From: Streptomyces sp. SCUT-3
Lineage (GTDB): Bacteria > Actinomycetota > Actinomycetes > Streptomycetales > Streptomycetaceae
Reading direction: 5' to 3'
DNA length: 64,000 nt
NCBI RefSeq assembly: GCF_014083985.1
Contig: NZ_CP046907.1
Location: 1,902,001-1,966,000, forward strand
Shown here one piece after another: positions 26,110 to 33,037 of the stretch. The position numbers and the translations under genes are program-made. Below the pieces are notes generated by a model. That model had not been told where the DNA came from. It saw only the letters and a program-made list of their open reading frames with translations, and ran no database searches. Position 1 is the stretch's first letter; each line of letters opens with the position of its first letter.

Positions 26110-26646
26110 TCACCCCGCCCGGCCGCTCTTCCCCGCGCCTGCCCCCGTTCCCGTCCCCGTTCCGGGCGCGGGGCGCGGGCGCAGTACCGCGATGCGCACG
26201 GGCAGTGCCCGCACCGCGCGGTCCACCGCCCGCAGCACCGCCGCGAACAGCCCGCGTCCCCCCGTTCCCGGGCGGCCCCGGCCCGGGCCGGCCGGGCCGA
26301 GACCGGCCGGGCCGGTCCCCGGGCCGCCGAGCAGCCGCCAGCGCAGCACGGCCCGCCCCAGCACCAGTTCCTCCGGCACGGCGCCGAACTGGCGGCTGTC
26401 CGGTTCGGCGTACGGGTTGTCCCCCAGCACCCACCAGCCGCCGTCCCGCCGTCCGGTCGCCCGCTTGACGATCAGCAGGTCCTGCTGGAGCGGGTGCCGC
26501 AGCACCACCACGTCCCCGGCCCGGACGGGCACCCCGTAACGCACGAGCAGCCGGTCGCCGTGGCGCAGCGTCGGCACCATCGAGGGGCCCACCACCTCCG
26601 CCACCCCGAGCGGCGGCCCGGCGGCCGCCCGTCCCGGATCACCCAT
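26110..26646 (-). CDS. sodX: Nickel-type superoxide dismutase maturation protease
   Basis: A 178-residue S26 (signal-peptidase-like) protease that removes the propeptide of NiSOD so that nickel can bind the new N-terminal His. The Ser/Lys dyad is visible as VVGPSMVPTL (Ser22) and DLLIVKRATG (Lys61), with the GDNPYAEPDSRQFG box after it. The start at 26646 follows GAGGAGG. It is divergent from sodN across 147 bases, the standard arrangement. The last 75 residues are Gly/Pro/Arg-rich and longer than I would expect. Confidence 0.93.
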   Translation of the reverse strand: MGDPGRAAAGPPLGVAEVVGPSMVPTLRHGDRLLVRYGVPVRAGDVVVLRHPLQQDLLIVKRATGRRDGGWWVLGDNPYAEPDSRQFGAVPEELVLGRAVLRWRLLGGPGTGPAGLGPAGPGRGRPGTGGRGLFAAVLRAVDRAVRALPVRIAVLRPRPAPGTGTGTGAGAGKSGRAG

Positions 26647-26793
26647 CGCAGGCCTCCTCACGACCTCGTCGTCCTCCCGTCCCGTCCGCCCGTCGGACTT
26701 TTGGCCCAGACCTCCGGGGGCAGGCGGGAAAACACGTCCCCCGGGGAGTAACCTCCCCCTGAGAAGACGATCACGTACCGAGGAAGGACAGTA

Positions 26794-27189
26794 ATGTTCT
26801 CTCGCCTGTTCGCCCCGAAGGTCAAGGTCAGCGCCCACTGCGACCTCCCCTGCGGCGTGTACGACCCGGCCCAGGCCCGCATCGAGGCCGAGTCGGTCAA
26901 GGCCATCCAGGAGAAGTACCAGGGCAACGACGACCCGCACTACCGGGCGCGTGCCGTGGTCATCAAGGAGCAGCGCGCCGAGCTGGCCAAGCACCACATC
27001 TCGGTGCTGTGGAGCGACTACTTCAAGGCTCCGCACTTCGAGAAGTACCCGCAGCTGCACCAGCTGGTCAACGACGCGCTGAAGGCCGCCTCCGCGGCCA
27101 AGGCCTCGACCGACCCGGCCACCGGCCAGAAGCTGCTCGACCTCATCGCCGAGATCGACAAGATCTTCTGGGAGACCAAGAAGGCCTGA
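26794..27189 (+). CDS. sodN: Nickel superoxide dismutase
   Basis: A 131-residue NiSOD precursor that removes superoxide in the cytoplasm. A 14-residue propeptide (MFSRLFAPKVKVSA) precedes the nickel hook HCDLPCGVYD; after cleavage His1, Cys2 and Cys6 bind nickel and the mature enzyme has 117 residues, the standard length. It forms a hexamer of four-helix bundles in known structures. ATG preceded by GAGGAAGGACAGTA. The divergent sodX encodes its protease. The 3' UTR may yield a regulatory RNA. Confidence 0.98.
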   Translation: MFSRLFAPKVKVSAHCDLPCGVYDPAQARIEAESVKAIQEKYQGNDDPHYRARAVVIKEQRAELAKHHISVLWSDYFKAPHFEKYPQLHQLVNDALKAASAAKASTDPATGQKLLDLIAEIDKIFWETKKA

Positions 27190-27738: not shown

Positions 27739-27996
27739 CTACTGCGGCGCCGGGCCGCCGTTGTTGTTGTGGATGTGCAGTTCGCCGTTCATGACGGTGT
27801 AGAGGCTTGCGTCGTCCTTCGCGACGTTCTTCTGGGTCGCCCCGGCCGCGCGGTCTTCCCGGGCCGGCGCGTCGGTGGCCGGCGCGTCGAGCCGGTCCCT
27901 GCCGACCTCGACGTGGTTCCTGTGACCGGCCACGACCGTGCCGGAGACGTCACCGCCGATGCTGATCGAGAACCGGTCGCCCTGGGAATTCGCCAT
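27739..27996 (-). CDS. 85-aa protein with two different interaction-like motifs
   Basis: No known family. Two short motifs are joined by a charged Ala/Asp/Arg linker. The N-terminal one (IGGDVSGTVVAGHRNHVEV, residues 13-31) matches residues 33-51 of the NTPase encoded just upstream at 11 of 19 positions. The C-terminal one (NVAKDDASLYTVMNGELHIH, residues 57-76) matches the C-terminal motif of the 151-aa protein at 32582-33037 and that of the cyclase-like protein. It therefore resembles an adaptor that could bring both modules together; that is inference. The start at 27996 follows AAGGGA. It sits 41 bases downstream of the NTPase gene and is probably co-transcribed with it. Confidence 0.7.
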   Translation of the reverse strand: MANSQGDRFSISIGGDVSGTVVAGHRNHVEVGRDRLDAPATDAPAREDRAAGATQKNVAKDDASLYTVMNGELHIHNNNGGPAPQ

Positions 27997-28037
27997 GGTG
28001 GGTAATCCCTTCGTCCGTGGTGGAAAGTCGAGGAGGA

Positions 28038-30548
28038 CTAGGACACACGGGTCCAGGTTTCGGCTTCGCAGTCGAGGCACGTCCAGGAGCCGTCGGACTG
28101 CGCGGTTTTCTGAACCTCGACGGTGCTCCCGTCCTGAGCAACGGCAAAGGTCACGTCGACCTTTCTGTCGGTCACTCCGCAGGAGCCCTCTTCCTGCATC
28201 GGTTCCGAGGCGCTGTAGCTGCCGTCGCTGCCGGTGACCTCCACGGTCACGGTCTCGCCACAGGAGCCTCGAAGCATGTACGTGTACGAGCCGTCCCCCG
28301 AATCGACGATCTCGTGGCCGTTGCCCTGGGCGTCCTCCCACACCCCCGCGAGGTCGTTCCCCGGCCCGGTCGAGGTGTCGGGCTCCGACTCCCACGTGTC
28401 GGTCCCCGAGTCCCCCGTGTCGGTCCCCGAGCCCCACGGGTCCGTCCACGCCGTCTCCGAGGGCTGGGACACCACCGTCGGCGGGCTGTTGTCCGACTCC
28501 TGGTTCTGGTAGACGCCGACACCGATGCCGATCGCGGCGACCGCGGCGACCAGGGTCATGACCCCGCTCGCCACCACCGTGCCCGCGGCGACGCCACCGC
28601 CCGTCCCGGCGGTGGTGCCCGTGGTGGCCGCGCCCCAGGAGTGGGCGGTGCTCTGCACGCCCGGGTTCATCACCTGCGCCGCGGCGTCGGGCCCGGGCGG
28701 AGCGGGTGCGGCCAGTGACGTCGGGTCCGCCGCCACGTCGGGCCCCGGGCCCTGGGGAGTGAAGTCGGCTCCCGCGGTCGTGGCGTCCCCGCCGTGCGGG
28801 ACGGAACCGGCGGTGCCGTCCGGGACGGACGGCGCCGTGCCTGCATCGGGCCCCGGGACCGTGCCGGCATCGGGCCCCGGGACCGGGCCTGCGTCGGACG
28901 GAAGTGTCGTAGTCGTTGTCGTGTCGGCGCCCGGGACCGTGCCGCCGTCGGCCGGGGACGGTGCCGTGCCGGTGTCGGCGCCCGGGAGCGCGCCGCCGTC
29001 CGGGGCGGGCTGCGACGGTACCTGGGGCTGCGGCGGCGGTGTGTACTGCTGGGCGTTGAGCGCGGCGTCGACGCCGTCGGTGTCGCCCAGTTCCCGCCAC
29101 AGCACCACTGCCTCGGCCAGGAGGGTCGCGGCCACCACGCGTTGGCCGACCAGGAGGCACCGGACGGCTTTCTCGTGGGTGAAGTAGGCCTCGGCCGTCC
29201 TGTCGCCCGCCCGCCGGGCGGCGTCCTGGCCCTGGTCGAGCAGCCGGCCCCACACGCCGAACCGCAGTGAGTGCGCCAGCGCGGGCGACACGGCCCGTGC
29301 GACCCGCACGGCGAGGTCCGGCCGTCCCTGGTGCTCGGCCAGTTCGGCCGCCAGCTCCAACGCCCGCCCGTGGTCGGCGACCTGGGCCGGGGTGGTGGAC
29401 GGCAGCGCGGCCCAGCCCGCGAAGTGGTCGCACAGCCGGTCGGCGGGGAACGCCCGGGGGTTCCGGCGCCGGACTTCCGGCACGGCGTCCGGGGCGCACC
29501 GGTACCCGCGCTCCGTGGCCAGGGCCAGTCCCAGGCCGGCCAGGTCGCCGCAGAGCGCCGCCGGGTCCGCGACCCGGCACAGTGCACCGATGTGCGCCGG
29601 GGCCAGCTCCGCGTCGCCCAGCGTCGCGAGGAGGTGCAGGGCGCTCGTCGCCGCCGCGTCGAGTCTGTCGAGCAGCAGCGGCAGCAGGCCCTTGACCTGG
29701 GCCGGGCGGGGCAGCCTGACCGCGTCCGGCGCGTCGAGCCGGGCCAGTCCGGCCGCGCGCAGCAGCAGCAGGGGCCGTCCGAGCGACAGCATGCACAACT
29801 CGCCGGCGGCCGCCCGTTCGCCCTCGGGCAGCGGGCGGCCCAGCTCCCGGGCCAGCAGCTCCAGTCCCGCCTCGCGGCGCAGTCCCTGCAGCTCCAGCGG
29901 CGTTCCCTCGCCGAGCAGGGTCCGCTCGCGGCCGGCGAGGACGAACGTCGCGTCAGGGGCCGCGTCCGCGAGCAGGTCCAGCTGCTCGGGGGGCAGGTCC
30001 GCGTCGTCGAGGTACACCGTCACCCGGACCCCGGCCATCAGCCGCCGCAGTTCCGGGCCCGTCGGCGCGTATCCGGGGGCCTCGTAGCAGGCCTCGAATA
30101 TCTCCTGGGCGAGGTCTCCGGCCTCCCGGTGGGCCGCGTTCAGGAACAGCGCGCCGTCCGGTCCGGGCTCCAGGCAGCGTGCCGCGTACCGCAGGAGTGT
30201 GCTCTTGCCCACCCCGGGCGGCCCCCACAGCTGCACCGGGCCGCCCGCCCGCACGGCTTCCTCCAGGGCGGCCAGGTCGGCGTCCCGGCCCACGGGTTCG
30301 CGCCGGCGCCGGGGCAGCAGTGCGACCCGGTCGCGGCGCACCGGCCGCGGGCGCTCCTGCGGCGCGAGCAGGGTCACGGTGGACCCGTGCTGGGCGTCGA
30401 TCACGACGTTGTGGTTGCCGGCGACCACGGGCCCCGACACGTTGCCGTCGATGTCCACGCGGTACTCGTTGTGCGCCTGCCCGGCCGCCGCGTCCCGGCC
30501 GGGCCCGTCCGGGGCGCCCACGGCGCCGTCCGTCTCTTCCATCGCCAC
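28038..30548 (-). CDS. STAND/NLR-like NTPase with membrane anchor
   Basis: An 836-residue multidomain protein. An N-terminal motif (VDIDGNVSGPVVAGNHNVVI, residues 31-50) precedes a P-loop NTPase (Walker A GPPGVGKS 109-116, Walker B VYLDDAD 178-184, ATFVLAGRERTLL near 200) and a helical region to about 505. Then comes a Pro/Gly/Thr-rich stalk (about 508-640, with DAGTVPGPDAGT repeats), one transmembrane segment (about 657-681) and a beta-rich C-terminal domain of about 150 residues with paired cysteines (RGSCGETV, GSCGVTD, TCLDCEAE). The NTPase half should be cytoplasmic and the tail outside. GTG at 30548 (GGGA upstream) or ATG at 30542 are both possible starts. The role is unknown; the architecture suggests a signal-transducing switch ATPase. 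Confidence 0.75.
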   Translation of the reverse strand: MAMEETDGAVGAPDGPGRDAAAGQAHNEYRVDIDGNVSGPVVAGNHNVVIDAQHGSTVTLLAPQERPRPVRRDRVALLPRRRREPVGRDADLAALEEAVRAGGPVQLWGPPGVGKSTLLRYAARCLEPGPDGALFLNAAHREAGDLAQEIFEACYEAPGYAPTGPELRRLMAGVRVTVYLDDADLPPEQLDLLADAAPDATFVLAGRERTLLGEGTPLELQGLRREAGLELLARELGRPLPEGERAAAGELCMLSLGRPLLLLRAAGLARLDAPDAVRLPRPAQVKGLLPLLLDRLDAAATSALHLLATLGDAELAPAHIGALCRVADPAALCGDLAGLGLALATERGYRCAPDAVPEVRRRNPRAFPADRLCDHFAGWAALPSTTPAQVADHGRALELAAELAEHQGRPDLAVRVARAVSPALAHSLRFGVWGRLLDQGQDAARRAGDRTAEAYFTHEKAVRCLLVGQRVVAATLLAEAVVLWRELGDTDGVDAALNAQQYTPPPQPQVPSQPAPDGGALPGADTGTAPSPADGGTVPGADTTTTTTLPSDAGPVPGPDAGTVPGPDAGTAPSVPDGTAGSVPHGGDATTAGADFTPQGPGPDVAADPTSLAAPAPPGPDAAAQVMNPGVQSTAHSWGAATTGTTAGTGGGVAAGTVVASGVMTLVAAVAAIGIGVGVYQNQESDNSPPTVVSQPSETAWTDPWGSGTDTGDSGTDTWESEPDTSTGPGNDLAGVWEDAQGNGHEIVDSGDGSYTYMLRGSCGETVTVEVTGSDGSYSASEPMQEEGSCGVTDRKVDVTFAVAQDGSTVEVQKTAQSDGSWTCLDCEAETWTRVS

Positions 30549-30857
30549 GTCTCATTCCCGGTCGCGGAGAGTGCGACCGCCCCCTGGCGGGACGCCTGGG
30601 CGCCCGTCGGTTCCGAAGTTCTCCGTGCAGCCGGGCGGTTCGGCGGCACGTCCGCCCCGTCCGCCCGTCGGCCTTCCGGGTTTCACGCTAGCGAGGACCG
30701 CGGCGGGCAATACCGTCGTACGACTGCTTCTGCTCATTTGCTCCACAGCTCGCGCCCCGGCGGGCGACGGCGGTCCGTCCCGCCGGTCCGTCCCGCCGGT
30801 GCGTCCCGCCGGTGCCGCGCGGCCGCCGCGGTCACGGCGGACGCGGCGGACGCCGTG
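30549..30857 (-). promoter_or_regulatory. Upstream region of the NTPase gene
   Basis: 309 bases without a gene between the Crp-like gene and the NTPase gene (same strand). The stretch 30680-30750 is locally AT-richer and contains a TAGCGT -10-like hexamer on the minus strand near 30690, so the NTPase/85-aa pair probably has its own promoter here. No repeat or hairpin of note. Confidence 0.4.
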
Positions 30858-31589
30858 TCACCGGTGGTCGAAGGCGATGCTGTTCAGACGGGTGAGGTCC
30901 TCGACCCGGATGGTGCGGTAGCCCGTGGAGACCACGCCCGCCTCGCGGAACCTGCGCAGCGCCTTCTGCACGGTGGGTTCCGCCGCGCCGGCCAGGGTCG
31001 CCAGTTCCGGCTGGGTGATCGGCCAGCGGATCACGACCCCCGCGCCGGAACGCTCTCCGTGGGTCATCGCGATCTGGTGGAGGACCCGGGCCAGCCGGGT
31101 GGTGGCGTCGCACCCCGTGAAGTCGATGCGGTGGGTGTTGGCGGCGCGGAGCTTGGAGACGACGGACGCGTTGACCGCGTGCGCGATCCCGGGGTCGTCG
31201 CGCATGCGGGCGAGGAATTCGTCGCGGCCGACGACCCTGGCGGCCACCGGCCCGCAGGCCGTGGCCGTCGCCGACCGGGGCTTCCCGTCCAGCGCCGCGA
31301 ACTCGCCGACCAGGTCCCCGCCCATGCGGACGGCCAGCAGGGCGTCCCGGCCGTCGTGGGTGCGTCCGGTCACCTTGACCACGCCGCCGAGGAGCACCAG
31401 GACGAAGGTGGTCGGATCCGATTCGCGCACGAGCACGCGGCCCGCCTCGTACCGTTTCCGCACGCCCAGCGCGAGGAGCCGGTCCCGGGCGGGCCGGGGG
31501 AGGCCGCCGAGCAGGCTCGCCGGGGGCCAGGTCCGTTCCTCCCGCGCCGGTCCGCCGTCCGCGCCCCGGCCCTGCGGTGTGCCACCCAT
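30858..31589 (-). CDS. Crp/Fnr-family regulator
   Basis: A 243-residue protein with an N-terminal cyclic-nucleotide-binding fold (RYEAGRVLVRESDPTTFVLV, LLGGVVKVT, GGDLVGEFAALDGKPRSAT with the phosphate-binding-cassette-like GEFAALDGKPRSA) and a C-terminal Crp-type winged helix (PITQPELATLAGAAEPTVQK). The cassette resembles Crp but the ligand is not certain. The start at 31589 follows GGGGAGCGC. It is divergent from a nucleotidyl-cyclase-like gene across 238 bases, which suggests that the cyclase product, if any, or the protein itself acts on this regulator. Confidence 0.85.
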   Translation of the reverse strand: MGGTPQGRGADGGPAREERTWPPASLLGGLPRPARDRLLALGVRKRYEAGRVLVRESDPTTFVLVLLGGVVKVTGRTHDGRDALLAVRMGGDLVGEFAALDGKPRSATATACGPVAARVVGRDEFLARMRDDPGIAHAVNASVVSKLRAANTHRIDFTGCDATTRLARVLHQIAMTHGERSGAGVVIRWPITQPELATLAGAAEPTVQKALRRFREAGVVSTGYRTIRVEDLTRLNSIAFDHR

Positions 31590-31827
31590 GCGCTCCCCGC
31601 CTCCTGCCGACGCGGGGTCCGTCGCCGGGACCCGTGCGGCCCCGGGACCCGCTTCGGCGTCTTCTTCGCCGGAGCCCGCTCCTGCGGCTTCGGGCCGATC
31701 CAGTATTGCGACGGGATCCGCCCCTTTCAATCGGGGCACAGTGGGAGCACGGACGTGGCAGGGTACGGCCACGCCCCGCTTCGAGGACCACCCGTGCCGG
31801 GGCCCGTCCCGCCGTCAGGAGGAGCGC

Positions 31828-32571
31828 ATGGAAGAAGAACCGGAGTACCGGGCCCTGTTCGCCGCGGACATCGAGGGCTCGGCGGGGCGCGGCGACGTGG
31901 CGCTCCGGCAGATCCGCGAGGTGCTCCGGGCGGCGCTCCGCGAGTCGTTCGGGCGGAGCGGGATCGAGTGGGAGGAGTGCCTGCGCGACGACCTTGGCGA
32001 CGGCGTGCGGGTGACGGCTCCGGCCGGGGTCCGGAAGGCCCGGCTGATCCACCCGCTGGTCCACGAGCTCGCGGTCCGCCTCCGCGCCCACAACGAGCTC
32101 GCCGGGCCGCTCGCCCGGGTGCGTGTCCGGGTCGCGCTGCACGCGGGGGACGTCCGCATCACCCCGGACGGCAGGGCCGTCGGCCGGCCGCTCGAGGTCC
32201 TCGCCAGGATGCTCGACGCCTCACCCGCCCGGGACGCCCTGGCCCGGACCCCCGGGGCCGCGGTGGCGCTGCTCGTCTCGCGGCACTTCCACGAGGAGAC
32301 GGTCTGCCACGGCTCCCCCGGGATCGACCCCGCCGCCTTCCGCGAAGTCACCTTCACCGAGAAGGAGTACACCGCGTCCGCCTGGCTCCACGTGCCGGAG
32401 TACAAGGTGCTCGCCCCGGGGCCCGCCGGGCGGGCGCCGGGCGGCGGAGGGGCGTCCGGCGGCGGAGGGGCGTCCGGCGGCGTGAGGATGATCAGCAGGG
32501 CTTCGGGCAACGGGACCGTCTACGCGCTCGGGAACGGCACACAGAACATCCACATCAACGGCAAGGCGTGA
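31828..32571 (+). CDS. Nucleotidyl-cyclase-like protein with C-terminal motif
   Basis: A 247-residue protein whose first 190 residues resemble a class III cyclase homology domain: FAADIEGSAGRGD (Asp14), GDGVRVTAPAGV (Asp58), VRVALHAGDVRI and GRPLEVLARMLDASPARDAL. Both metal-binding Asp positions appear present, but I see no clear transition-state Asn/Arg pair, so catalysis is doubtful. A Gly/Ala linker (GGGGASGGGGASGG, 206-219) leads to a terminal motif SRASGNGTVYALGNGTQNIH (222-242) like those of the 151-aa and 85-aa proteins. GGAGGAGCGC precedes the ATG. Streptomyces carry many such cyclase-like proteins of unknown role. The next gene starts 10 bases on. Confidence 0.7.
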   Translation: MEEEPEYRALFAADIEGSAGRGDVALRQIREVLRAALRESFGRSGIEWEECLRDDLGDGVRVTAPAGVRKARLIHPLVHELAVRLRAHNELAGPLARVRVRVALHAGDVRITPDGRAVGRPLEVLARMLDASPARDALARTPGAAVALLVSRHFHEETVCHGSPGIDPAAFREVTFTEKEYTASAWLHVPEYKVLAPGPAGRAPGGGGASGGGGASGGVRMISRASGNGTVYALGNGTQNIHINGKA

Positions 32572-32581
32572 AGGGGCCCGG

Positions 32582-33037
32582 GTGACCGAGGAACTGACCC
32601 TGCTGGCGGAAGCAGGCGCCGCGGCAGTGGTCGCGGCGATGGCGACGGACCTGTGGCAGAGCACGAGGGAGGCCGTCCTCGGTCTCTTCCGCCGGGGCGA
32701 CCCGGACCGCAGTGCCTCGGTCGAGGCCCGGCTCGACGGGAACGCCTCCATGGTGCGGGGGACCGCGTCCCCCGACGACGTCCGGCAGGCGCTGCTCGGG
32801 GCCTGGGCCCTGGAGCTGGAGGCGCTGCTGCGCCGGGCCCCCTCCTGCCGCACGTCCCTGGCCCGGCTGGTCGCCGAGGTCGACGGCGCCCTCCGGGACG
32901 GCCGCGGGAGGCCCGTCCTGGAGCAGACCAACACCGCCCGCGACTCCGGCACCGTCTTCGCCGTCCAGTACGGCGACCTGCACGCGTACGGGCCGGACCG
33001 GACCGGGGCCCCGCCCGGCGCCGACCGGTCGTCGTGA
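32582..33037 (+). CDS. 151-aa partner protein with GTVFAV motif
   Basis: No assigned function. The N-terminal 25 residues are hydrophobic and Ala-rich (LLAEAGAAAVVAAMATDLW); the middle (30-110) is helical and charged (STREAVLGLFRRGDPDRSAS, LLGAWALELEALLRRAP); the end carries NTARDSGTVFAVQYGDLHAY (117-136), which aligns without gaps to the C-terminal motif of the 85-aa protein and, in its core, to that of the cyclase-like protein. GTG start after AAGGGGCCCGG, 10 bases after the cyclase-like gene, so the two form an operon. Similar two-gene units occur in other Streptomyces, from memory. Confidence 0.65.
   Translation: MTEELTLLAEAGAAAVVAAMATDLWQSTREAVLGLFRRGDPDRSASVEARLDGNASMVRGTASPDDVRQALLGAWALELEALLRRAPSCRTSLARLVAEVDGALRDGRGRPVLEQTNTARDSGTVFAVQYGDLHAYGPDRTGAPPGADRSS

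What the first reader, a model, noticed from the sequence alone, without database searches (positions are those of the whole stretch)
27739..33037. Four neighbouring proteins share two kinds of short terminal motif; an 85-aa protein carries both
Motif A: NTPase residues 33-51 (IDGNVSGPVVAGNHNVVID) and 85-aa residues 13-31 (IGGDVSGTVVAGHRNHVEV) agree at 11 of 19 positions without gaps. Motif B: the 85-aa C-terminus (LYTVMNGELHIH), the 151-aa C-terminus (VFAVQYGDLHAY) and the cyclase-like C-terminus (VYALGNGTQNIH) share the pattern [YF]-[AT]-[VL]-x-[NY]-G-x-x-[HN]-[IA]-[HY]; upstream, a conserved Ala lies five residues before the [TS]-[VL] pair in all three. The 85-aa protein thus joins a module-A partner (membrane-anchored NTPase) to module-B partners (cyclase-like protein and its neighbour, divergent from a Crp regulator). 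Short motifs shared between a STAND-type NTPase and small neighbours are the hallmark of bacterial amyloid signalling (NLR-associated) systems, but these are not assigned to a named motif family here.
Basis: partly seen in the sequence, partly recalled or inferred. Interest (0 to 1): 0.85.

Follow-up and report, generated by a model that had tools for sequence, protein, structure and literature searches.

The report
Two-motif adaptor linking NTPase to effectors
A tiny Streptomyces-family protein carries one short tag matching a neighbouring sensor ATPase and another matching two likely effector proteins, so it probably works as a plug adaptor in a bacterial immune-type signalling complex.

Summary
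The window carries a conserved five-gene locus: 85-aa protein, NTPase, Crp regulator, divergent from a class III cyclase-like protein and a 151-aa helical protein. A profile of the 85-aa family, run over the whole own genome, finds four places at E<=10: itself, the 151-aa C-end, the NTPase N-end and (weakly, 0.16) the cyclase C-end, all in this locus. In 33 loci analysed, the N-half of the small protein follows the NTPase of its locus through four motif types, one quite different, while its C-half stays motif B. Among 117 other family cyclases in 150 genomes, 34 loci were fetched; there the cyclase tail itself matches the adjacent STAND NTPase N-terminus (28 scored, 0 of 20,000 permutations as good), no adaptor was found, and 15 have PycTM-like Pycsar genes. 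Best reading: a bipartite adaptor bridging a receptor and effectors whose homotypic tags do not match, in an amyloid-signalling-like STAND system. Amyloid formation, cyclase activity and anti-phage function are untested; motif A lacks the RHIM/BASS3 core. New variant of a known kind.

The parts
27739..27996 (-). 85-aa bipartite adaptor (P0001)
   Evidence: Translation; no Pfam, PADLOC or NCBIfam match at E<=1; 20-row alignment A1, in which every invariant or near-invariant column lies in motif A or motif B
27904..27960 (-). motif A in the adaptor, residues 13-31
27763..27834 (-). motif B in the adaptor, about residues 55-78
28038..30542 (-). 834-aa STAND-like P-loop NTPase (P0002) with N-terminal motif A, one C-terminal hydrophobic stretch and a Cys-containing C-terminal part
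   Evidence: AAA_16 27.9 bits, below its cut-off 32.6; alignment A4
30396..30452 (-). motif A in the NTPase, residues 31-49
30198..30224 (-). Walker A GPPGVGKST of the NTPase, about residues 107-115
   Evidence: a GxxxxGK[ST] match in 30 of 33 loci
28503..28580 (-). hydrophobic, probably transmembrane stretch of the NTPase, about residues 655-680
   Evidence: read from the sequence; no topology program was run
30858..31589 (-). Crp-family regulator (P0004): cNMP-binding domain plus HTH_Crp_2
   Evidence: Pfam 1.5e-16 and 2.9e-14; Crp-like called gene in 31 of 33 adaptor loci
31828..32571 (+). 247-aa class III nucleotide-cyclase-like protein (P0005) with C-terminal motif B
32485..32559 (+). motif B at the C-end of the cyclase-like protein, about residues 220-244
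   Evidence: weak hit of the adaptor profile, 0.16
32582..33037 (+). 151-aa helical protein (P0003) with C-terminal motif B; Bell-like effector candidate
32921..32995 (+). motif B at the C-end of the 151-aa protein, about residues 114-138
   Evidence: hit by the adaptor profile in the whole genome at 4.3e-6

Best explanation
The locus encodes a STAND-type signalling system in which short homotypic tags, probably beta-arch or amyloid-like, pass the signal. (1) Inferred: the membrane-anchored NTPase senses a trigger and oligomerises. (2) Inferred from shown tag matching: its N-terminal motif A nucleates assembly of the 85-aa adaptor through the adaptor's own motif A. (3) Inferred from shown tag matching: the clustered adaptor C-halves present motif B and recruit the two proteins ending in motif B, the cyclase-like protein and the 151-aa helical protein, a likely membrane-acting executor. 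(4) Inferred: the cyclase raises or shapes a cyclic nucleotide signal read by the divergent Crp-family regulator, while the 151-aa protein damages or gates the membrane. The adaptor exists because receptor and effectors carry different tag types; in the paralogous systems examined, where NTPase and cyclase tags match, no adaptor was found. Shown: conservation of both motifs, linkage, matched tag pairs, class III cyclase homology. Not shown: amyloid, physical interaction, cyclase activity, biological trigger.
For: In the 33 loci analysed (four damaged loci dropped) cyclase 33, 151-aa 31, Crp 31. Adaptor N-half scores 55-60 with NTPases of its own motif type and 17-45 with the other types; in 31 loci with all parts the N-half scores 61 with the NTPase and 23 and 21 with the cyclase and 151-aa tails, the C-half 27, 52 and 62. 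L097/L098 carry an adaptor whose N-half is a different motif that again matches its own receptor, NACHT-containing in L098. Cyclase tail matches the adjacent NTPase N-terminus in 23 of 28 scored paralogous loci at z>5 (50 shuffles each); own-pair mean 70.3 vs 39.2 for other pairs, 0 of 20,000 permutations as good. Own genome: paralogous cyclase and nSTAND3 protein share a 26-residue segment (z 20). No adaptor-profile hit in 5857 six-frame stretches of the 34 paralogous loci, and no small ORF (1406 scanned, 28 loci) resembling the tags as well as the matched cyclase tails do. Adaptor profile in the whole own genome: only the four locus proteins. Cyclase profile A7 hits cyclases in the PDB (3mr7 1.1e-7, Ma1120 1.4e-5). 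PycTM-like genes in 15 of 34 paralogous loci and 0 of the 49 other loci; 151-like genes in 0 of the 34 (called genes).
Against: No amyloid, interaction or activity data exist here. Within one motif type the adaptor does not consistently single out its own NTPase (own NTPase ranks from 1 to 28 of 33), and the permutation tests do not correct for relatedness of loci. In eight close pairs uncorrected pN/pS is the same in motifs (0.36) and the rest (0.37) of the adaptor. Motif A lacks the RHIM core in 66 of 66. The transition-state Asn of class III cyclases is Glu123 in the window and the substrate-specifying Lys is not kept, so catalysis is doubtful. The Walker A lysine is lost in L038, L039 and L040. 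Five of 28 paralogous pairs did not match with the neighbour picked; with the other neighbour L137 and L142 reach only z 2.7 and 3.3, below the best shuffle, and L133 rescored without masking only equals it. 151-aa protein: no significant fold match. Cyclase model pLDDT 43.5.
Confidence: 0.62

Rival explanations
1. The motifs are ordinary docking peptides or small beta-augmentation modules that form a stoichiometric complex, with no amyloid or templating.
For: Nothing measured here distinguishes amyloid from other homotypic binding; motif A lacks the RHIM core; N- or C-terminal peptide docking would also give matched pairs.
Against: The tags match each other in sequence (like with like) across several unlike types, as homotypic assemblies do; ordinary docking pairs a peptide with an unlike pocket (general knowledge).
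Confidence: 0.25
2. The 85-aa protein is a decoy or brake: it caps NTPase and effector tags so that they do not assemble without a trigger.
For: It has two tags and no recognised further domain and lies 41 bases behind the NTPase gene, so both would be made together (inference).
Against: A brake would also be useful in the paralogous systems with matching tags, where none was found; its C-half keeps the effector motif through four receptor types.
Confidence: 0.13
3. The sharing is a relic: the 85-aa gene arose by fusion of an NTPase 5' end with an effector 3' end and has no function.
For: Its two halves look like copies of neighbouring ends; pN/pS is no lower in motifs than elsewhere.
Against: Kept across two families of one order, with invariant motif residues and a linker of variable length; uncorrected pN/pS about 0.36 suggests purifying selection; its N-half differs in step with the NTPase in L095-L098.
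Confidence: 0.05

Closest known systems
BASS systems (bacterial NLR/Bell amyloid signalling; Dyrka et al. 2020, not held; seen through PMC7889193 section 9 and passages of PMC8086366, PMC12261475 and PMC9815663)
   Same: Short tag before an NLR/STAND NTPase, tags at C-ends of small neighbouring effectors, adjacent genes, filamentous actinobacteria, small helical effector candidate
   Different: Two different tag families in one system joined by a tag-only adaptor; a cyclase-like effector and a Crp regulator; the adaptor's receptor-side tag is N-terminal; no match to the RHIM core of the RHIM-like type
RHIM adaptors of animal necroptosis such as TRIF (PMC9182532 seen only in the search listing with the start of its abstract; otherwise recalled)
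   Same: An adaptor uses an amyloid-type motif to bring receptor and executor together
   Different: TRIF joins a RHIM to a folded TIR domain (recalled); here both halves are short tags
Pycsar (PycC cyclase with PycTM or PycTIR effector; Pfam PF18967 and PADLOC models; mechanism recalled)
   Same: Paralogous loci with the same cyclase family carry PycTM-like genes (15 of 34; two confirmed by Pfam)
   Different: The five cyclases scanned match no PycC model; cyclases carry STAND-matching tails; the window locus has no PycTM-like gene
Effector-associated-domain conflict systems of multicellular bacteria (PMC7159879 and PMC8195603, passages read)
   Same: STAND or ternary ATPase systems paired with cNMP cyclases, the partners sharing N-terminal modules
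   Different: Those passages describe folded domains; here short tags, and an adaptor between unlike tags

Membership tests
BASS-type amyloid signalling system | Motif N-terminal to an NLR/STAND NTPase, repeated in a protein of a neighbouring gene | tested here: met
BASS-type amyloid signalling system | Repeat lies at the C-terminus of the effector | tested here: not met
   For motif A the partner is the N-half of the adaptor; C-terminal effector tags carry motif B instead
BASS-type amyloid signalling system | Sequence belongs to one of BASS1-10 | not testable with these tools
   Profiles and the original paper are not held
BASS-type amyloid signalling system | Motif forms seedable cross-beta fibrils | not testable with these tools
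   Needs peptides
BASS-type amyloid signalling system | Bell effector: small helical bundle with a hydrophobic helix | tested here: inconclusive
   151-aa model all helical, pLDDT 56.6, no significant PDB match; no Bell sequence or model was available
RHIM / PP / BASS3 motif | Core G-(I,V)-Q-(I,V)-G (PMC7885112, passage read) | tested here: not met
   0 of 66 N-terminal segments
Class III nucleotide cyclase | Sequence and fold homology | tested here: met
   Profile A7 vs PDB: all 11 listed hits are cyclases or receptors with a cyclase domain, E 1.1e-7 to 0.03; the narrower profile A3 found none and no Pfam cyclase model matched; fold matches weak
Class III nucleotide cyclase | Two metal-binding Asp | tested here: met
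   D14 and D58 invariant in 30 of 30 rows; role assigned through the alignment and recalled cyclase chemistry
Class III nucleotide cyclase | Transition-state Asn and Arg | tested here: not met
   Arg127 invariant in 30 of 30, but the Asn position is Glu123 in all 19 rows of A3; several paralogues keep Asn
STAND NTPase | P-loop (Walker A) | tested here: met
   Present in the window and in 30 of the 33 loci
STAND NTPase | Curated Pfam NTPase domain above its cut-off | tested here: inconclusive
   AAA_16 27.9 bits against 32.6; a paralogous NTPase of this genome is nSTAND3 at 28.5 against 27.2
Pycsar | PycC-type cyclase by family model | tested here: not met
   No PADLOC hit for the window cyclase (E<=1) or four relatives (E<=0.1); one PycC-labelled model matches the Crp protein instead, over its cNMP-binding region (4.1e-5)
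Pycsar | cNMP-gated PycTM or PycTIR effector in the locus | tested here: not met
   No PycTM-like called gene in the window or the 48 other non-paralogous loci; PycTIR hits of the Crp protein cover its cNMP-binding region only

The most novel reading that the evidence does not exclude
A bacterial adaptor made only of two different signalling-amyloid motifs converts one amyloid specificity into another, letting a STAND receptor with tag A drive a second-messenger cyclase and a membrane executor with tag B; the tags of receptor, adaptor and effectors form an exchangeable code across a large actinobacterial family of STAND-cyclase-Crp systems.
Probability: 0.42. Interest if true: 0.9.

Novelty: new variant of a known kind. 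Interest (0 to 1): 0.8.

Why it matters
If right, it shows how nature connects two orthogonal homotypic signalling polymers with a minimal heterobifunctional piece. It extends tag-mediated STAND signalling from killer proteins to nucleotide cyclases. It also supplies many natural matched and mismatched tag pairs, so specificity of amyloid-type signalling becomes directly testable with peptides of 20-30 residues.

Tried and rejected
Rejected: RHIM/BASS3 core membership of motif A (0 of 66). Rejected: unlinked occurrence in the own genome (the earlier one search gave the same three strong hits but had scored only 18 of 101 candidates). Motif B does occur in other genomes outside adaptor loci: (50 of 293 order genomes with a hit) mixes whole adaptors with motif-B-only hits, and of 12 such motif-B places opened (L083-L094) 11 hold a 151-like gene and one (L089) none. 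Not supported: different evolution of motifs and linker in close adaptor pairs (pN/pS 0.36 vs 0.37). By eye I thought motif B sits directly on NTPase N-termini in L084, L087, L088, L091 and L092. Shuffling supports at best L084 and L091 (z 3.9, 4.4; only L091 exceeds every shuffle) and not L087, L088 or L092. L083 looks convincing (E 0.0015; frame read) but was not shuffled. Two weak matches (L050, L054) showed none of the five genes among the called genes and were dropped; by my reading that leaves 21 of 297 genomes, G116 being the one removed. Four adaptor loci (L033 decayed, L042 at a contig end, L043 frameshifted adaptor, L044 rearranged) were dropped before the 33-locus counts. Of 34 paralogous loci 6 were not scored (3 without a called cyclase, 3 without an NTPase-sized neighbour); 83 of the 117 paralogous cyclases were not fetched. 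The groups I, II, A', C and D1-D6 were named by me after looking at the tags, so the group tables illustrate; the permutation tests do not use groups but do not correct for relatedness. Gene calls in neighbours come from my own simple caller (written, run), which missed or shortened some genes (NTPase starts in L051-L053, the adaptor in L037, the NTPase in L083). Pfam, PADLOC and NCBIfam gave no meaningful family for the 85-aa, 151-aa and cyclase proteins. The narrow cyclase profile found nothing in the PDB. In one search unrelated folds rank among the cyclases, so the fold match alone is weak. Paper searches on this point; no title or abstract listed describes a two-motif adaptor or a tag-sharing STAND-cyclase pair, but Dyrka et al. 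2020 is not held, so absence from print is not established. PMC4886424 (cyclase-like DUF2652 proteins; abstract and passages) is a different family by name; no direct comparison was made.
Full report
WHAT IS THERE. On the minus strand lie the 85-aa gene (27739-27996), 41 bases behind the 834-aa NTPase gene (28038-30542), and a Crp-family regulator (30858-31589). On the plus strand, divergent from the regulator, lie the 247-aa cyclase-like gene (31828-32571) and, 10 bases on, the 151-aa gene (32582-33037). Of the five, only the NTPase (AAA_16, below cut-off) and the Crp protein (cNMP_binding 1.5e-16, HTH_Crp_2 2.9e-14) have Pfam matches worth naming.

IS THE MOTIF SHARING REAL. Shuffling the window proteins alone supports 85-aa/NTPase (2 of 2000) and 85-aa/151-aa (3 of 5000) but not the cyclase pairs (781 and 1601 of 5000). 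With homologues the picture is clear. A motif-A profile built only from other genomes' NTPases hits 20 of 21 85-aa proteins among 404 proteins, with a gap from 1.4e-4 to 0.13 before the first unrelated one. A motif-B profile built only from other genomes' 151-aa C-ends hits 21 of 21 85-aa and 20 of 20 cyclase proteins, all but one ahead of the first unrelated protein (1.7), though the window's own two are weak (0.10, 0.13). A profile of the 85-aa family run over the whole 6.07 Mb genome, with 150 of 161 candidates scored, gives four hits at E<=10: itself (1.2e-29), the 151-aa C-end (4.3e-6), the NTPase N-end (1.4e-4) and the cyclase C-end (0.16).

CONSERVATION. A single-sequence search found 85-aa relatives in 22 of 297 Streptomycetaceae genomes at E<=0.01 (at most 18 candidates scored per genome); one genome (G116) looked spurious on inspection. 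The named S. avicenniae NRRL B-24776 has the whole locus in the same order (L031). The cyclase profile found 137 copies in 96 of 150 family genomes, 20 of them at E<1e-100. Thirteen of these 20 lie in loci already opened for their adaptor; the other seven were fetched and all seven carry NTPase, adaptor with both motifs, Crp, cyclase and 151-aa gene. In the 33 loci analysed (four damaged loci dropped), 33 have the cyclase, 31 the 151-aa gene and 31 the Crp gene. In the adaptor alignment the invariant and near-invariant residues all lie in the two motifs, and the spacer varies (22 to 51 residues in the 15 adaptors where both cores fitted a strict pattern). In eight close pairs, however, uncorrected pN/pS does not differ between motifs and the rest.

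THE ADAPTOR FOLLOWS ITS RECEPTOR. Four receptor-tag types occur. Types I and II are variants of motif A. Type A' (L095, L096) has (I/V)GRD(L/I/N)NG(A/V)(I/L)VVA in both NTPase and adaptor. Type C (L097, L098) is a different segment (adaptor VSNTVSGGNQYAAVVQSGEITNLTF; receptor VRNEAGGTSYGPLVQAGKIESIVFQG), on a receptor that has a NACHT domain in L098, the one scanned. Mean alignment scores of adaptor N-halves are 55-60 with NTPases of the same type and 17-45 with others; none of 20,000 permutations reaches own-locus pairing. The C-half stays motif B: in 31 complete loci it scores 62 with the 151-aa tail and 52 with the cyclase tail but 27 with the NTPase, while the N-half scores 61 with the NTPase and 23 and 21 with the cyclase and 151-aa tails. 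Inside a type the adaptor does not consistently prefer its own NTPase, and relatedness of loci is not corrected for.

THE WIDER FAMILY. The other 117 cyclase copies fall to E 3.6e-45 and weaker. I fetched 34 such loci, one of them in this genome. In 28 scored, the cyclase tail matches the N-terminal segment of the neighbouring NTPase: mean 70.3 for own pairs against 39.2 for others, 0 of 20,000 permutations, 23 of 28 at z>5. At least five tag types look unlike each other, for example GAGAGGDVVGGD in this very genome (L032), RN.FNV.GTN..FD.ST in L131 and GQTGGT...G.QHF in L138. These loci carry a Crp gene (30 of 34) and often a PycTM-like gene (15 of 34; 0 of the 49 other loci), and no 151-like gene (0 of 34) among called genes (Pfam PycTM confirmed for L032 and L135). 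A dedicated search found no adaptor-profile match in their 5857 six-frame stretches, and no small ORF among 1406 that resembles the tag as well as the cyclase tail does in the matched loci (best 22-44, the positive control in ten adaptor loci being 51-81). So adaptor systems have the 151-aa protein where many paralogous systems have a membrane Pycsar effector; this complementarity suggests, but does not show, that the 151-aa protein is the membrane executor.

THE CYCLASE. A 30-row profile of the family hits cyclases in the PDB (3mr7 1.1e-7; Ma1120 1.4e-5), and the low-confidence model (pLDDT 43.5) has cyclases as its first 12 Foldseek matches, at weak E-values. D14, D58 and R127 are invariant in 30 of 30. 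The aligned transition-state Asn is Glu123 in all 19 rows of the adaptor-clade alignment (Ile or Ala in L084 and L097), while several paralogues keep Asn; the substrate-specifying Lys position varies. Activity is therefore open. The Crp protein keeps a GE...RSA element that I recall as the cAMP phosphate-binding cassette.

MECHANISM. I take the system to be a tag-wired STAND signalosome. The NTPase oligomerises on a trigger, its motif A templates the adaptor, adaptor motif B collects cyclase and 151-aa protein, the cyclase branch reports to the Crp regulator and the 151-aa branch acts at the membrane. Tag matching is shown; each step is inferred. The adaptor makes sense as a converter between unlike tags, because none was found where receptor and cyclase tags already match.

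COMPARISON. It works like the BASS systems (PMC7889193 section 9): N-terminal tag on the NLR, C-terminal tags on neighbours, filamentous actinobacteria. It is not filed as a BASS member: the effector tags differ from the receptor tag, the partner of motif A is an adaptor N-terminus, the RHIM core is absent, and the BASS1-10 profiles and amyloid tests were out of reach. The BASS3 peptide printed in PMC8086366 section 13 resembles motif A by eye only. In the passages read, bacterial tags are reported with Bell, CHAT and TIR domains, not cyclases (the word cyclase does not occur in PMC7889193), and no two-tag adaptor is mentioned; the defining paper was not held.

VERDICT. New variant of a known kind, with high interest because the tag code is testable with short peptides.

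Noticed in passing
window 26110-27189: Nickel superoxide dismutase gene (PF09055, 1.7e-46) beside a divergent gene that looks by eye like a signal-peptidase-type protease, probably the usual Ni-SOD maturation pair (recalled).
   Followed up: no
L084 8979-9560, L085 5793-6314, L086 9107-9628, L098 9245-9796: A second, shorter protein of 173-193 aa with weak cyclase-core similarity (9e-4 to 3e-6) lies beside the full cyclase in one genus, possibly a partner for a heterodimer.
   Followed up: no
L045, L048, L049, L051-L053, L099-L102: Type II loci lie beside genes whose ends look alike and which are PP2C phosphatase in L045 and vWA in L049 (the two checked), and near a gene that looks like a Ser/Thr kinase, recalling the ternary conflict systems of PMC7159879.
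   Followed up: partly
L038, L039, L040 NTPases: The Walker A lysine is replaced (GTGTS / GSGTS) although the neighbours and motifs are kept, so ATP use may be dispensable in this branch.
   Followed up: partly
L090 8188-9996, L093 5491-7293, L094 5631-7439: A 600-aa protein with a motif-B match at residues 123-138 (1e-6) beside a 151-like gene; L090's copy has no Pfam match at E<=0.01.
   Followed up: partly
L087, L088, L091, L092: Large proteins beginning with a segment like GYAYGVIGGDIHVFGDG lie next to 151-like genes; a possible further receptor tag, not significant against the 151-like tails in L087, L088 and L092.
   Followed up: partly
L033 (G030): A decayed copy of the locus: fragments of NTPase and 151-aa genes beside an intact-looking adaptor gene.
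   Followed up: no
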